64,000 nt of DNA from the NCBI GenBank assembly GCA_006386115.1, contig VFIW01000087.1, positions 124,001 through 188,000 of the forward strand. The letters are read 5' to 3'. This stretch comes from Globisporangium splendens. Its lineage: Eukaryota; Oomycota; Peronosporomycetes; Pythiales; Pythiaceae. The notes under the pieces are model-generated. The model saw only the letters and a program-made list of their open reading frames with translations, was not told the DNA's origin and did no database searches. The translations under genes were made by a program, and so were the position numbers. Below are positions 41,152 to 48,085 of this stretch, one piece after another. Position 1 is the first letter of the stretch. Each line of letters opens with the position of its first letter.

Positions 41152-43270
41152 GAGCGCACTGTTTGCACAACGCCGACCTCAAGGGCCGGGTGGGGCGTAA
41201 TTGATTCGTCACTGAGTCACCGAATAGCTACAGATGACTCAGGACACCGAGTGATGGTCTTGTCCGTTACCACCCAGTTAGCCAATCAGATGCGCGTGAC
41301 GCAGGACGCGTGACCATATTTGACACCGCAATGGGATCAGCTCGGACGAAACATGAGATGCTCGCCGGTGTCCTGTGTCGAGCTCATTGCGTCGATCTTC
41401 CGACGGACGAAACAAGGGGGATGCGACACAGCGTAGCCATGCGAAGAGGCGTAATCGCGGTGCCACTGTAGCTCATACAACTAACCATCCGGTCGAACAC
41501 ATTGCTCTCCATGTCCGCCTCAGAATCCAATTTGCAGCGGCGGCAAAAGGTGATAGGCTCGCCTCGTGCGTGACGCCGTGGTCATCGTCGCGAAATCACT
41601 CGGTGCATCAATGCAATGGGACGAGAACCTTCGTGCATGAACCATCATCGTTCTGTGTGTGGGATTCAGGTGGATCGCCGTCTTCCAACTTGCGATCATG
41701 CTCCATAGCAAGCGTCCATCCGGTGCTGCTCCTCGACTTAGTCAGGGAGATGAAGACACTGTTGAGTCCCAGGTTGCGTCGGCGCTGTCATCCGCATGCC
41801 AGCCTATGAGAAGACATAGCGTGCATCAGATCAGCGCAGGTGATATCCGGTCGGACATTGTCGTCCCTAACATGTAGCAGTCCAGTCCACGTACACCAGA
41901 GGTGATCATTTTGCTCTTCATGGTCCAGTATCCGTCCATATGCAAACGCTCATTTAGCTCACTCCGCTGCCGTCCATGCAAAAGATGCCATGTCCGATTC
42001 CAAGGGTCCATAATCGATGGGAATGCAAGTCGTATCGGTGCTCGTGGAGTCCGACAGCAGCACAGCAGGATAGAAAAACATCATGCAATACCCTTTGACC
42101 TGTCTGAAGCTTCCACCTGACCAGTTAAATCGTGGAAGTGACCGTGATTGACTGCGTGCCCGCCTCAGGACCACTGTGTTTGCGCAATTGCAGTCATTTC
42201 AACTTGGACAAAATGGGCTTCAGAGTTCCCGTTGAAGCAACATCTTGGGCTTGAAGTTGTGGCTACCACGATTGTGTGCCTTTTGACTTTGACAATGCAG
42301 GTGCCAGGCTCTTCCTGTCAAAATCGACTTCTTGGACATGTGAATGCCATCCGGGCTGTCAAGTCATGAGAAATGGTCTTTTCATAGCGCAATGACCGTT
42401 CGAACCTCCATCAAGCAGGACCTGGAAAAAGGTATTTTTAAATACAAATGATTCCACTTGAACAATTAATTATTGAAAACCGACGAGACTAGTATCCGGC
42501 TATGCCAGCGCAATTGAAACCAACCGCTAAAATTGTGCAATCACCGCCGACAGCCGCAGAAACAGAAGCCATCAAGTGCTCCGATAAGAAGAGAGTCACA
42601 GCTCAAGCGGAAAGAGCGAGACGACGACTACGCGACAATGGTTCTTCTTCATGGCAAAGATGCGCAGTCGCAGGGTTCGTCCATCGAGTACATTGATAGG
42701 AATGCACTGACGCTATTACTTTGACGTACTGCACCGACGTACTTTGTCCCGGTGTTTATGGGGAAAGTGTACCCATGTCAAGCGCGACACCTCTCATAGG
42801 TCGAACAACCTCGTGACTCGTGCTTCGTCATTCTGCTGCCAGTCGAACGCCGGCAACATCCACTGTCATGGGCACAACCTGACACCCACACTGCTAACAA
42901 AAGAACATCGTTTCCCACCATGCACCAAAGTGGAGATGGACGCTCGATGTTGCGGTTCGTGGGCTCTCAGATGGACGGCCAGCTGCCACAGCGCAGTAGC
43001 CTTTCGTCGTCATCGTCCTCCTCGGAATCGAGTCCCACGAGGAGGAACTCCAAGCGCTCGTGACGCACTCAGACTAGCCAATCCAGAGGCGAGTCTGCTC
43101 TTTTATCAGAAAGAGGAAGAAAGGCTTCTGGCATGACGAGAATGGGATCCTCTGAAGCAGGCATGATCTGCTGACTTTGTACCATGTACGCTCGCAGGTT
43201 GTTCTGCCCGCATGGGGTGCCACGATCCTCTCTCTCAAAAGTCCAACCCCGGTAATAATCTGCGCCTCTT
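41152..43270. other. 2.1-kb intergenic with decayed element remnants
   Basis: No intact gene. Minus-strand frames at about 41826-42174 hold ERLHMDGYWTMKSKM, which is reminiscent of the gag region of copia-type retroelements (L.g..Y..W), and frames around 41520-41900 continue with shifts and stops; it may be an old fragment. Around 42502-42724 there are two short overlapping ORFs rich in K/R. Everything else looks unremarkable. Confidence 0.35.
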
Positions 43271-43286
43271 GCTCACTTTGCAATTC
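43271..43286 (+). promoter_or_regulatory. oomycete Inr+FPR core promoter for APC transporter
   Basis: GCTCACTTTGCAATTC matches the core consensus (GCTCAYTYYNCAWTT) and lies 97 bases upstream of ATG 43368. It supports that ATG over the in-frame one at 43212, which is upstream of the motif. Confidence 0.7.
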
Positions 43287-43367
43287 GCGCGCTTCTTTAC
43301 ACACAGTCATCACCCCCAGTTCCTTCTCTCTGCCATATTGATCTTGGAAAGATCTCAAACAGCAAAG

Positions 43368-44831
43368 ATGTCCGCGAGTGTCATCATGTCCCCCGCAGTC
43401 GAAGGAACGAGTGGCGACACCCCGGAAAGCCACCGGTATGCTAAAGTGCCGCACTTGTGGGCACTCGGCGTCGGCGCCGTCATCGGTGGCGACTTTTACG
43501 GCTGGCAGTCCACGCTCATCGCTGGGTACCTGGGTCTGCTCGTCATCCTCGCGTTCGTGACGGTGCTGTACGTGTTGCTGTCGTTCTCCATCGCCGAGAT
43601 GTCGTCCATGATGCCTACGGGCGGCGGTCCGTACGTCTTCTCGCTGCACGGCATCGGCCCTCGCGCCGCGTTCTTCGCCGGTCTCGCCGAGACGCTCAAG
43701 GTCGTCGTCACGGTCGCCACAACGTTCTACACCATCTTCCTGTATCTGGACGCACTGTTTGGCCTCGGCTCGGACTATAGTCCGCTCTGGTGGGTCCTGT
43801 TCGCCACGGTGTTCGTCGGCCTCAACGTCATGGGCGTCGAGGCGTCGTTCCGCGTGCAGGTGTTTGCAACGCTGCTCTCGGTGTTCATGCTCGTCATCTT
43901 CTACGTCGGCGCCGCCACCAAGCTCGACTACAACCGCTGGGTCGTGCAGCAGGACTGGGAGTTCACCAACTGGAGCGACGCCATCAAGGGCGTGTCCTTC
44001 GGGCTCTGGTTCTACTTTGGCATCGAGGAGCTGCCGCTCGCGGCCGAGGAGACAATCGAACCGGAGAAAAACATGCCGCGCGGTCTCGTGGCGTCCATCC
44101 TCACGCTCGTCGTGCTCTCGTTCTGCACGGCCACGTTCAGCACGTTCATCGACCCGGGCGCCGTCGGTATGTACCAGTCCACGGCGCCGCTCGTGCTCGG
44201 CTACCAGAGCGTGTTCGGCGACACGACCACGACGTCCTACTTCACGTGGATCACGGTCATCGGCATCATCTCGAGCACGCACTCGTTCGTGTTCTGCATG
44301 GGGCGGCTGCTCTTCGCGATCGCGCGTGACGGTTTCTTCCCCGAGTTCCTCACCAAGGTGCACCCGACGCGCGGCTCGGCGTACGCGGCACTGATCGCGG
44401 GCGGCGTGGTCTCGCAGGTCATCGCCATCGTGCTGCACTTCGTGATCGGTGACGTGCGCCTGGGTGGCGTGCTCATCAACCTCGCGCTCATCGGTGGCCT
44501 CATCTCGTACGCGTTCCAGCTCACGTCGTACATCTTGCTGCGCATGCGCGAGCCCGAGCGTCTGCGGCCGTACAAGAGCCCGTTCGGCGTGCCGGGAGCC
44601 GTGCTCTGCCTCGCGCTCTGCGTCGCGGCGCTCGCCGCCATCGTGTACAGCGGCGCATCGGACCGCGACTTCCGCGCGTCGCTGGCGGCCGCCGTCATCC
44701 TCTTCGCGCTCGGCACGCTCTACTTCCTCAAGAGCGTGCAGCCGCGCCTGCAGAAGCAGGGGCGCGCGTCGCCCACGCGCATCAAGGAAATGCGCGAGAC
44801 ACTGATCAGCCAGCGCTCGAGTCTCGTGTAG
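43368..44831 (+). CDS. APC-family amino acid/amine transporter
   Basis: Single exon, 487 residues with about 12 hydrophobic helices. TM1 begins at LWALGVGAVIGGDFYGW, with the unwound Gly-Xaa-Gly substrate motif of the LeuT/APC fold (GAVIGGDF), TM3 and TM6 (GVSFGLWFYFGIEELPLAAEE) also characteristic. The EELPLAAEET segment and YGWQSTLIAGY resemble bacterial ethanolamine permease-type APC members. It likely moves amino acids or amines across the plasma membrane; the substrate is not predictable. C-terminus is basic (RLQKQGRASPTRIKEM). GC-rich codon use with a spectacular antisense ORF of 597 codons (43074-44867) that is a shadow. Start supported by the core promoter motif. Confidence 0.92.
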   Translation: MSASVIMSPAVEGTSGDTPESHRYAKVPHLWALGVGAVIGGDFYGWQSTLIAGYLGLLVILAFVTVLYVLLSFSIAEMSSMMPTGGGPYVFSLHGIGPRAAFFAGLAETLKVVVTVATTFYTIFLYLDALFGLGSDYSPLWWVLFATVFVGLNVMGVEASFRVQVFATLLSVFMLVIFYVGAATKLDYNRWVVQQDWEFTNWSDAIKGVSFGLWFYFGIEELPLAAEETIEPEKNMPRGLVASILTLVVLSFCTATFSTFIDPGAVGMYQSTAPLVLGYQSVFGDTTTTSYFTWITVIGIISSTHSFVFCMGRLLFAIARDGFFPEFLTKVHPTRGSAYAALIAGGVVSQVIAIVLHFVIGDVRLGGVLINLALIGGLISYAFQLTSYILLRMREPERLRPYKSPFGVPGAVLCLALCVAALAAIVYSGASDRDFRASLAAAVILFALGTLYFLKSVQPRLQKQGRASPTRIKEMRETLISQRSSLV

Positions 44832-45191
44832 GGAAGGATGTACTTCCAGCATTTTATCTACTTGCACATTTTATACAATTAATTGCAGTTTGTTGTTGAT
44901 TTTCGCCTGTTGTTGTTGACAGCTTGTGCGTTTGTTTATGCAGCGGAACAGAATGTGATGGCGCTATATTGGAACTTAGACCCATTGCGGTAGTTCGGGA
45001 TAAATAAAGACGATCATAGAAGAAGGTATTATTGAATGTTTGACGGCAAATGTGGAAACAAATGTAAACTGTCGACATCTCAGTACTGACGGGTCTATTT
45101 CAATTTCTCACGATCAACGAGCATCATTCGTCCGATACAGACCACAATTGCTATTTAAAGATGCATAGCGCCCTAACTACTTATTTTGGTA

Positions 45192-45207
45192 GTCATTCTT
45201 ACAATTT
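45192..45207 (+). promoter_or_regulatory. oomycete Inr+FPR core promoter
   Basis: GTCATTCTTACAATTT fits the consensus in full and lies 24 bases before the ATG at 45231; the in-frame ATG at 45186 is upstream of it and is therefore unlikely. Confidence 0.7.
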
Positions 45208-45230
45208 GCCGAGCCATTCGCAAAGCAAAA

Positions 45231-47195
45231 ATGGGAGAGGCGCATGCGGCGTACGCGTCGGCGCTGGCGCAGCGCATGGCGCAGTTCCTCCACGCCACGC
45301 GCCTACGCGTAGAGCCCTCGGTGGCGTTCGTGTCGTGCGAGTGTGCTGATCACCAGCACTTCGTCCCGGCGTCTGCGCTCGACACGCACTTGGTACGGAA
45401 AACGAGCCGCGCTCTCTCTGCTGCTTCCTGTGCTAATAGATGTGCATTTACTTAGAAAAGCGCGCATGGCGTTCGGTATCCGAAGCATGCTTCCCACCAG
45501 GTAATAGACGCAGCATATCTATCTCTCGTGTAATGGCGTGAAGCTCACGGCGTGCGGCGTGTAGTTCTTTTATACGAATGCGCCTGGTGTTGAGCGACTC
45601 ACGCATTCCCAGGAAGCTACAACAGGCGATCATACCAGCAGCAATAAGGACACAATTGAAGAAGCACTACGTTCACATGCGTCACCAGACACTGATACAG
45701 TGCACAAGGCACTTGAAAGCAACGATGCACCAGCAGGAGAGGACGAAGATGGGGAACAGAGTATGCTGCAGAGTCTATTGGAACCGCTGGCATCACCACA
45801 GGATGCTCATGGTGCAGGAGACGAAAACCAGGTCTTGTCACGTGAACAGCTTATCAACGTGATAGCTGAGTTGGCGTCGGGCACGGCGGAATTCTACACG
45901 ATCGTTCAGAAGTGGCAGCGCATTCCGCGGGCGTTTGCGCACTTGGCGACCACTGTCGACAATAACAGCAGCACTAGCACCAACAGCGTGGCGATGGTCG
46001 TGCCGAAGCAGAGCGTGCAAGGATGGCTCATTGCCGAGCTGAGCCATACATTGTTCAAGGACGAACTCCTCGACATGGAGCTCGTCGATTACATCGTCGG
46101 GCTGCTCGAACACCCCGAGTTCTGCCAGCCAGACCTCCTCGTGCTGGAGCTCCACGAGTTTCTCGGACAGGATACCGAGGTACGCCGTCCTAGTTGAGAA
46201 GTTATCAACGTGGCTATGGAGAGGATGATGAGAGACTGACTTTGTTGCATGCGTGCATGTGTTGTGGGTTTTCTAGCGTTTTGTGCTCGCGCTGTGGAAG
46301 TTCCTCGTGGTCGAGATCGCGATGCGGATCGCATTTGTAAGTGCGAATTTCTAGTTGCCAGGCTTCAGATGTTCTCTTGTGACTTATTGTATCATGTTTA
46401 TATGATTTATGATCGCGTAGAACACGACTAAAGACACACTGGAGAAGCAACTTCGAGCGAAAAGGGAGCAGGACGCTGCGGACCAAGCGAAGCACATGCT
46501 GGAAATGTTGCGCGCGACAGAGAAGACGCGTACGTGAGGCCTTTCCCATTCATGGTAATCTTTTGCCAAGATCTTGCTCTCACAAACCAGCTTGTGTTAA
46601 AATTTGCTTTGCAGAAGCTGATGCAGCACGTGAAGCTTCAAAGTCCGCTGTGGTTAGTGCCGAGCGTGACTACAAGCGCCGACGACCAACGTACCGTGGC
46701 AAGAAAAATGGTGGCGGTCCGAAAAGCAACCGCGAGGTTCTCCGCGAGGTGCTCGAGAAACAAATGCTGAGCTTATGCGTGGACTGCGGATGGGAACTAG
46801 CGGAAGACCCGAACGATGCAGGTGACGAACGTCAGGATGGATCACAACGTCCAGATCCCAGTAGGCGTGCTTTGAATGCTGATTGGATGTCGTGCACCGA
46901 CGCACTGCGAGTTCGGGATATGGGTCGAGGTCGAACCAAAACCGAAGCAGATCGAGGTGAGTCTGCACAGCCGCCTCGCCATTCTCAAGGTAGAAAGCGG
47001 AGTAGGAGCAGATCGCGAAGTCCAAGCCCCAGTCGACGCCATTCGGAACGAAGTAGGCACCATCGAAGCGCAAGCCGAAGTCGAAATCGCAGGAAGAGAA
47101 GCCCCCGGCGTGACTCACACTACAGAACTCGCAGCCGTAGTCGGTCTAAAGAGCGTCGTCGTCATGACAACTCCAGCAGACACAGGAGGTCGTAA
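45231..47195 (+). CDS. SNRNP48: U11/U12 snRNP 48K-like protein with inserted PWI domain and RS tail
   Basis: Six exons: 45231-45392, 45456-45500, 45613-46179, 46277-46336, 46421-46529 and 46615-47195; 507 residues. The N-terminus has a CHHC-like zinc finger (CECADHQHFVPASALDTHL) but the final Cys of U11-48K appears to be replaced. The middle (residues ~203-280) is a PWI domain: LFKDELLDMELVDYI, EHPEFCQPD and RFVLALWKFLVVEIAMRI match RBM25-type PWI. Residues ~330-360 (AERDYKRRRPTYRGKK then SNREVLREVLEKQM) match the conserved block of human SNRNP48. The last ~85 residues are an RS domain. U11-48K binds the 5' splice site of U12 introns in the minor spliceosome. I know of no PWI in the canonical protein. 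The first two exon joins are less certain than the rest. Confidence 0.83.
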
Positions 47196-47602
47196 TGCAC
47201 GTATCGTCTTCTTGAGTGGAATTGTGGAGCGGCTGACATTGGAAATCACGGTCCAATGACCCAAGCGAATGGATCGTTTTCTGAAAGTATTAATACATTG
47301 AGAACGAGCTATGGGGCAAAAACAAAACAGTTGCAGCACATCAGATCGTATAGAGCGGTTCGGGCGCGATGTTCTGCCAACATTGTTCCGACGAGCCAAT
47401 TCGATAATCCCCAGAACCAGTGCATCATTTTTCAAGGAAGTGAGAAACTCCGCTCCAATGCCGCCTCCAAATAGATTCCTCAAGTGCGTCTTTGCTGGAG
47501 GAAGCGCCGCCGCTGTTGTGATCCCGAAGCCCACTTTCCAACTCGTCCCTCCCACGAGTCGACTCGCTTCTCAAGTTCACCTCAAGACCCAGATCATCAA
47601 GC
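47196..47602. other. intergenic between 48K and Jupiter-like gene
   Basis: No gene seen; short ORFs without features. Confidence 0.5.
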
Positions 47603-48085
47603 ATGGCGAATCGCTTTTCTGGTCCACCGCCTACGCAGAGCAACAACAATTTCATGACGGAGCGCTCGAGTACGCGGCTGCACAAGCCCCCTGGCGGCGG
47701 CAACGACGAGCTGTCGTACATGGACGACCGCATGGCCCGCCGGTTTTCAAGACCTGACGCCGCGGGACCCGAGCAGAATCTTCCCATTATTGGAGACAAG
47801 TTGTCGTACTACGGGACCCAGACAGCCATCCAGCGCGAGCGCGACAACATCACGCTTCCACCCGGAGCTGTTTCCAGAGACTCGATCACAGCTGCCCGTG
47901 AACAGCAGCAACAGTATGCTGGGAACCAGACCCAAATGGTTCGACGCAGCTCCCAGCAGCAGCAGAATGTGGCCTCGGGAGATTATTTCGCCAACGGCAT
48001 GGGCAACAACCAGGACAACGGCGAGCGCCGCACAAGGCGCATGTACGGCCCACCAGGCGGTGCATCGTCCTTCAAGCTCGGCTAG
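47603..48085 (+). CDS. small disordered protein with Jupiter/HN1-like PPGG motifs
   Basis: Single exon, 160 residues from ATG 47603 (MANRFSGPPPTQ). Low complexity, Gln/Asn/Gly/Arg rich, with no membrane segment. Two motifs, STRLHKPPGGG near residue 24 and RRMYGPPGGASSFKLG at the C-terminus, resemble the short R.L.PPGG.S.F.LG motif of Jupiter/JPT (HN1) microtubule-associated proteins. That match is short and could be chance. Codon use is coding-like with G/C third positions; the gene is otherwise unannotated in my memory. Confidence 0.6.
   Translation: MANRFSGPPPTQSNNNFMTERSSTRLHKPPGGGNDELSYMDDRMARRFSRPDAAGPEQNLPIIGDKLSYYGTQTAIQRERDNITLPPGAVSRDSITAAREQQQQYAGNQTQMVRRSSQQQQNVASGDYFANGMGNNQDNGERRTRRMYGPPGGASSFKLG

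What the first reader, a model, noticed from the sequence alone, without database searches (positions are those of the whole stretch)
45231..47195. U11/U12-48K minor-spliceosome protein with an inserted PWI domain
The gene combines a CHHC-like finger, the SNRNP48 block (DYKRRRPTYR), and an RS tail with a PWI domain (about residues 203-280) of the RBM25 type. PWI domains bind RNA/DNA and are known from SRm160 and RBM25, but I know of none in U11-48K. This would join a 5'-splice-site reader of U12 introns to a splicing co-activator domain. Domain recognition is by memory; the fusion in one transcript rests on hand-built splice junctions.
Basis: partly seen in the sequence, partly recalled or inferred. 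Interest (0 to 1): 0.75.

Follow-up and report, generated by a model that had tools for sequence, protein, structure and literature searches.

The report
Minor-splicing protein with extra PWI domain
A water mould's version of the protein that reads the start of a rare class of introns carries an extra helical splicing domain in its middle; the animal versions examined lack it, and the domain may give the rare-intron machinery a new contact point.

Summary
The + strand gene at 45231-47195 (6 exons, 523 aa) joins an N-terminal U11-48K-type finger region, a PWI domain, the 48K block (DYKRRRPTYR) and an RS tail. The PWI passes Pfam's cut-off; its predicted fold is closest to RBM25. A family profile finds one sequence among 177,635 in the PDB: human U11-48K (E 7.5e-8). 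Animal-type 48K matches both ends, not the middle, so the PWI is an insertion. The three-part architecture recurs in relatives from five oomycete genera, so it is not an artefact of this window. In this genome (evidently Globisporangium splendens) it is the only 48K candidate found; U11, U6atac, a U12-like RNA and AT-AC introns are present, U4atac was not found. The finger lacks the fourth Cys in 4 of 14 readable members, this one included, while the next residue is His in 14 of 14. Four paper searches found no link of PWI to U11-48K. Most likely it is the working U11-48K, with the PWI as an added, probably protein-binding, docking site; that function is inferred. New variant of a known kind.

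The parts
45231..45392 (+). Exon 1 (aa 1-54): N-terminal helix and first three finger ligands C36, H43, H53
   Evidence: four deposited models (P0001, P0006, P0142, P0146) leave the family sequence exactly after 'HL', the end of this exon
45336..45467 (+). U11-48K-type finger, C36-x6-H43-x9-H53-x4-H58 (interrupted by intron 45393-45455); the canonical fourth Cys is Ala57
   Evidence: hhalign animal-type N vs oomycete N, E 4.7e-8
45456..45500 (+). Exon 2 (aa 55-69), a 45-base exon skipped by the deposited G. splendens model P0001
   Evidence: matches G. polare 'RAVHGIKHAAHASHQ'
45565..46179 (+). Exon 3 (aa 70-274): FFY motif, acidic linker, upstream helices, first part of PWI; acceptor corrected from relatives
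45565..45573 (+). FFY motif after the finger, also in many animal 48K (e.g. 'SEFFYEN' in P0139)
46018..46336 (+). PWI domain, aa 221-294 (interrupted by intron 46180-46276)
46277..46336 (+). Exon 4 (aa 275-294): last PWI helix, RFVLALWKFLVVEIAMRIAF
46421..46529 (+). Exon 5 (aa 295-330 and one base): charged helix linking PWI to the 48K block
   Evidence: P0018 and P0019 read through extra sequence at the places of introns 4 and 5
46615..47195 (+). Exon 6 (aa 331-523 and stop): 48K block, conserved WMSCTDALRVRD, RS tail
46668..46775 (+). SNRNP48 block DYKRRRPTYRGKK...REVLEKQMLSL, aa 349-384
   Evidence: hhalign animal-type C vs oomycete C, E 2.1e-14, 47% identity over 36 columns
46992..47192 (+). 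Arg/Ser-rich tail, aa 457-523
   Evidence: 69% R+S

Best explanation
This is the oomycete U11-48K (SNRNP48) gene, a subunit of the U11 snRNP of the minor spliceosome, with a PWI domain inserted between its 5'-splice-site finger and its conserved DYKRRR block. Shown here: the sequence homology at both ends, the PWI, the recurrence in relatives, and minor-spliceosome RNAs and AT-AC introns in the same genome. Inferred: the finger reads the first bases of U12-type introns beside the U11 RNA, as in human; the block and C-terminal region hold the protein in the snRNP (towards U11-59K); the PWI is an extra docking surface, more likely for a protein than for RNA, giving this snRNP a contact of the kind that PWI proteins (fission yeast Usp107; RBM25 by recall) provide near the U1 snRNP.
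For: Family profile hits only human U11-48K among 177,635 PDB sequences; animal-type and oomycete profiles align end to end with the PWI as an insertion, E 8.6e-12; N-to-N and C-to-C match, crossed pairs and the middles do not. An animal-type 48K (P0020, unnamed source, nearest named relatives spiders) finds this locus in the genome at E 9.9e-4, the next match at E 0.7; PF05253 finds two other places, not this gene: L002 is TRM13 by Pfam and L001 nearly identical to it. PWI; 17 of 20 oomycete members match at E<=1. U11 50.1 bits (cut-off 39), U6atac 78.6 (cut-off 33), U12-like 47.3; control genomes above cut-off 0 of 14 in each. U12-type pattern 6 matches, 0 in the reversed control, of which L027 lies in an LSM-domain gene. 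Papers (passages): 48K recognises the first intron bases and binds 59K (PMC3584512); Brr2's PWI without P-W-I binds proteins, not nucleic acid (PMC8210318).
Against: The finger lacks the fourth Cys in this species and has x6 instead of x5 between the first two ligands; Pfam's finger model does not fire on it and reaches only 8 of 20 relatives, best E 0.013. U4atac was not found; 59K has only weak candidates, E 0.016 and 0.029; SNRNP25's domain only E 0.19. U12 lies under its cut-off. Single own-genome RBM25 and SRRM1 sequences align to the oomycete PWI profile only weakly (E 0.0025 and 0.0021, probability 12-13%). No expression or binding data. The PWI's net charge (-10) is not different in kind from RBM25 (-6) or SRRM1 (-7), and a basic stretch follows, so RNA binding is not excluded.
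Confidence: 0.78

Rival explanations
1. Two neighbouring genes (a finger/PWI protein and an RS protein with the 48K block) were joined by hand-built splicing.
For: The window protein rests on five inferred junctions and no transcripts; several deposited relatives are indeed merged with neighbours (P0007, P0013, P0014, P0015 with the downstream gene; P0010 with a thioredoxin; P0012 with a YTH domain).
Against: 15 of 34 rows carry finger, PWI and block together by motif pattern; two models, P0011 and P0145, from a source whose entries P0018 and P0019 appear to read through introns, run PWI, block and RS tail in one frame; the two ends are both 48K, flanking the PWI.
Confidence: 0.04
2. It is a paralogue or relative of U11-48K that has left the U11 snRNP and does another job, for instance a general SR-type splicing factor.
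For: Loss of the fourth Cys in four of 14 readable members; weak or missing 59K, 25K and U4atac.
Against: No other 48K candidate found in the genome, while U11 RNA and AT-AC introns persist. His at +5 is kept in 14 of 14, so the zinc site may be intact with a His.
Confidence: 0.15
3. The PWI is not an addition: it is ancestral to U11-48K, and animals lost or eroded it.
For: The animal-type model has helices in the same stretch between FFY and the block. 48K of other eukaryotic groups was not examined here.
Against: No profile signal between the two middles (E 0.33-0.36); 0 of 18 animal-type members match PWI; the Arabidopsis paper, read in passages, describes only the finger and an Arg-rich region.
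Confidence: 0.12

Closest known systems
U11-48K / SNRNP48 (human, PDB 8r7n chain F; animals)
   Same: N-terminal helix, finger, FFY motif, DYKRRRxxYR block, Arg/Ser-rich tail in the same order
   Different: Oomycete protein has an inserted PWI and no detectable match to the animal middle; finger spacing mostly x6 and, here, Ala for the fourth Cys
Arabidopsis U11-48K (714 aa, PMC4892727, passages read)
   Same: CHHC finger in the N-terminal half, Arg-rich C-terminal half
   Different: No PWI is mentioned in the text (0 occurrences); its sequence was not compared here
RBM25 PWI domain (PDB 3v53; own-genome copy L004, named by recall)
   Different: L004 reads APWV and RBM25 bears its PWI at the C-terminus (PMC10639069, passages); here the domain is internal and reads GWL
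Brr2 noncanonical PWI
   Different: Brr2 is a helicase; a Z this low alone proves nothing
SRRM1/SRm160 PWI (own-genome copy L003, named by recall)
   Same: PWI in an RS-rich protein
   Different: N-terminal PWI; no other Pfam domain in its frame
TRM13 (own-genome L001, L002)
   Same: Has a U11-48K-type CHHC finger (L002)
   Different: Methyltransferase; its frames gave no PWI match

Membership tests
U11-48K (SNRNP48) | N-terminal region homologous to the 48K finger region | tested here: met
   hhalign animal-type vs oomycete N-termini E 4.7e-8
U11-48K (SNRNP48) | Strict C-x5-H-x9-H-x3-C ligand set | tested here: not met
   Window: C-x6-H-x9-H-x3-A-H. Of 14 readable family rows, 10 keep the fourth Cys, 4 do not, 14 have His next to it. 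So it is filed as a divergent orthologue, not a canonical member
U11-48K (SNRNP48) | DYKRRRxxYR block with following helix | tested here: met
U11-48K (SNRNP48) | Reciprocal best match | tested here: met
   Family profile finds only human 48K in the PDB; animal-type P0020 finds this locus in the genome, E 9.9e-4, next match E 0.7
U11-48K (SNRNP48) | Contacts the U12-type 5' splice site and U11-59K | not testable with these tools
   No binding data; 59K candidate weak
PWI domain (PF01480) | Score above the curated cut-off | tested here: met
   33.2 bits against 22; 17 of 20 family members match at E<=1
PWI domain (PF01480) | Helical PWI fold | tested here: met
PWI domain (PF01480) | Literal P-W-I motif | tested here: not met
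   QGWL in Globisporangium and Pythium, xRWL or HQWL in the others, in 20 of 21 rows where the stretch could be cut out; only W kept. Filed as PWI by profile and fold, noncanonical in motif
PWI domain (PF01480) | Nucleic-acid binding | not testable with these tools
   Charge comparison does not discriminate
TRM13 / other CHHC-finger proteins | TRM13 methyltransferase domain | tested here: not met
   Pfam on the window protein gives PWI only, at E<=10

The most novel reading that the evidence does not exclude
In peronosporalean oomycetes the U11 snRNP took over, by insertion into its 5'-splice-site reader, a PWI module of the kind that serves the U1 snRNP side (Usp107/Snu71, RBM25). One polypeptide then both reads the U12-type 5' splice site and recruits the bridging or co-activator partner, which could stand in for weakened U11 subunits (59K, 25K) in a lineage that keeps few U12-type introns; the finger meanwhile moves its fourth zinc ligand from Cys to the neighbouring His.
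Probability: 0.25. Interest if true: 0.75.

Novelty: new variant of a known kind. Interest (0 to 1): 0.55.

Why it matters
U11-48K is the protein that reads the first bases of U12-type introns. A lineage in which it gained a domain known from other splicing factors offers a natural experiment on how a minor spliceosome is rewired when few minor introns remain, and gives a concrete, testable candidate for a new U11 snRNP contact. It would also explain database entries now filed only as 'PWI domain-containing protein'.

Tried and rejected
Strict CHHC in the window: rejected, the fourth Cys is Ala. First exon-3 acceptor (45613): rejected for 45565 on relatives' sequence. A hidden PWI in the animal middle: no profile signal; the animal-type model's fold search listed U11 snRNP chains and CHHC fingers first and no chain named as PWI, which does not exclude one. 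Charge as a test of RNA binding: does not discriminate. A USSE-like feedback element (TATCCTT) within 44831-47605: none on either strand. U4atac: none at E<=10. Rfam in the window: none at gathering scores. Relatives in Saprolegniales, Albugo, plants, fungi or other stramenopiles: not among the named hits, but those scored only about 8,000 candidates sharing most words, so absence is not shown. Of the six U12-pattern matches (gap 35-65 only), L025 has T before TATCC, and L028 and L030 (a near-identical pair) gave no open frame; they were not counted as introns. L026 gave open frames but no Pfam match. L027 gave four open readings; I chose the one with the LSM match. Controls: PF05253 rings in 1 of 14 control genomes; at E<=10 U11 rings in 3, U6atac in 11, U12 in 7 and U4atac in 11 of 14 control genomes, none over the cut-off. 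One search listed 120 of 535 proteins, none of the 120 with PF01480 in its Pfam column; I scanned 18 of the 120, six of them from unnamed sources.

Full report
What is there. The + strand gene at 45231-47195 has six exons: 45231-45392, 45456-45500, 45565-46179, 46277-46336, 46421-46529 and 46615-47195. All five introns are GT-AG and 63-97 bases long. The 523-residue product has an N-terminal helix and finger region, an FFY motif, an acidic linker, a PWI domain (221-294), a charged helix, the DYKRRRPTYR block (349-384) and an RS tail (457-523, 69% R+S). My first model began exon 3 at 45613; G. polare (HASHQFFYANAPGVER) and P. brassicae (HASHEFFYTNAPSVQR) show the acceptor at 45565. The deposited model of Globisporangium splendens (P0001, FI667_g14028) shows no difference over the exon parts it shares in the alignment; it skips exon 2, starts exon 3 at 45613, uses another acceptor for exon 6 and leaves the frame in the tail. 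The window is therefore evidently that species.

Junctions. I have no transcripts. Support comes from relatives. Models P0018 and P0019 carry extra, intron-like sequence at the places of introns 4 and 5; P0016 starts upstream of FFY and runs on past 'HEFLG', the places of introns 2 and 3; P0001, P0006, P0142 and P0146 leave the family sequence exactly after 'HL', the end of exon 1, and P0144 two residues later. P0011 and P0145, from the same unnamed source as P0018 and P0019, carry PWI, block and RS tail in one frame.

48K identity. phmmer hits human U11-48K in the PDB at E 2.3e-4 through the block. The family profile A2 hits it at E 7.5e-8, alone among 177,635 distinct sequences at E<=10, with a second, weak stretch (7.2 bits) over the finger in the right order. 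Profile against profile, 18 animal-type 48K (A4; 12 named animals, six unnamed) align with 20 oomycete proteins (A3) from finger to block at E 8.6e-12, with the PWI stretch mostly opposite gaps. Cut into pieces, N matches N (E 4.7e-8) and C matches C (E 2.1e-14, 47% identity over 36 columns), while crossed pairs (E 0.04-0.6) and the middles (E 0.33-0.36) do not. 0 of 18 A4 members match PWI and 18 of 18 match zf-U11-48K. In the genome, P0020, an animal-type 48K of unnamed source, finds this locus at E 9.9e-4 and next a place at E 0.7. PF05253 finds two other places: L002 is TRM13 by Pfam and L001 nearly identical.

Finger. Of 34 rows (window plus 33 family hits), 19 have the finger region; five of these leave the family sequence right after it (above) and cannot be read further. 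In the other 14 the fourth Cys is present in 10 and absent in 4 (window A, P0002 V, P0003 A, P0008 Y), and the next residue is His in 14 of 14. P0010 and P0012 come from one contig and may be one gene. Spacing between the first two ligands is x6 except in P0002 and P0003 (x5). I infer that His serves, or can serve, as the fourth ligand. Pfam's finger model reaches 8 of 20 A3 members, best E 0.013, and not the window. By the strict CX5HX9HX3C definition (PMC4892727, passages) this is not a canonical member; by descent it is the orthologue.

Distribution. One search returned 31 proteins at E<=10: 24 carry an oomycete name (Globisporangium, Pythium, Phytophthora, Nothophytophthora, Peronospora, Hyaloperonospora, Plasmopara), one a JGI identifier that I take for Phytophthora capsici (recalled), six are unnamed. 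One (P0141) is already called putative U11/U12 48 kDa protein. By motif pattern 15 of 34 rows have finger, PWI and block, from Globisporangium, Pythium, Phytophthora, Peronospora and Plasmopara; 21 of 34 have PWI and block; the rest are partial or merged models. Whether Saprolegniales or other eukaryotes have the PWI is not settled.

Is there a minor spliceosome here? U11: 50.1 bits, cut-off 39, with the 5' end AAAAAGGG of the model; U6atac: 78.6, cut-off 33; a U12-like RNA: 47.3, under the cut-off of 53; U4atac none. A U12-type pattern gives six matches and none reversed. L027 has an ATATCC...TTCCTTGAC...AC intron in a gene whose part before the intron matches LSM (E 1.1e-10; SmD3 by recall), and L029 an AT-AC intron before a CBS match (E 6.6e-4, under the cut-off; CNNM by recall). 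PMC10639083 (passages) confirms few minor introns in Phytophthora and dozens in Saprolegnia; PMC2846911 (passages) reports three U12 introns in P. sojae. The 59K candidate (L023) is weak: E 0.016 in the genome, 20.2 bits against 27 on its frame; SNRNP25's domain gave E 0.19 (that this Pfam family marks SNRNP25 is recalled).

Mechanism. In human, U11-48K reads the first intron bases that U11 RNA does not pair with, and binds 59K (PMC3584512, passages; PMC11039992, passages). Finger region and block being kept, I infer the same here. For the PWI I rank protein docking above RNA binding, because the P-W-I residues are lost as in Brr2, whose PWI binds proteins and not nucleic acids (PMC8210318, passages); but charge does not tell the two apart. 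The U1 parallel is the fission yeast PWI protein Usp107, proposed as the Snu71 counterpart in U1 snRNP (PMC2613882, one passage); RBM25's tie to the U1 side is recalled.

Print. Searches for U11-48K with PWI (one paper, whose two words are unrelated), PWI domain with U11 and minor spliceosome (none), SNRNP48 with PWI (none), PWI with U12-type introns (two, unrelated in the passages read). Only open-licence papers are held, so this is not proof of novelty.

Verdict. Real, conserved in relatives, and a new domain arrangement of a known snRNP protein; the function of the added domain is open.

Noticed in passing
window 47603-48085 (+): The gene downstream (MANRFSGPPPTQSNNNF...SSFKLG, no Pfam match) is merged onto the 48K model in four Phytophthora entries (P0007, P0013, P0014, P0015): annotation merges that also show conserved gene order.
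   Followed up: partly
window 43167-44831 (+): Upstream neighbour is an amino-acid permease (PF13520, E 1.2e-37).
   Followed up: no
L001 and L002 (contigs C147, C163): TRM13 is present twice in nearly identical form, probably two haplotypes kept in the assembly; L028 and L030 look like another such pair.
   Followed up: partly
L027, about 1500-1598: AT-AC intron with U12-type 5' splice site and branch site in an LSM-domain (SmD3-like by recall) gene: a core snRNP gene that itself seems to depend on minor splicing.
   Followed up: partly
L029: AT-AC intron candidate in a CBS-domain (CNNM-like by recall) gene.
   Followed up: partly
G000 (whole genome): U4atac was not found by Rfam while U11, U6atac and a U12-like RNA were; it may be too diverged or missing from the assembly.
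   Followed up: no
P0001 (G. splendens FI667_g14028): The deposited model skips exon 2, starts exon 3 late and leaves the frame in the tail, so it loses part of the finger region, FFY and the RS tail.
   Followed up: yes
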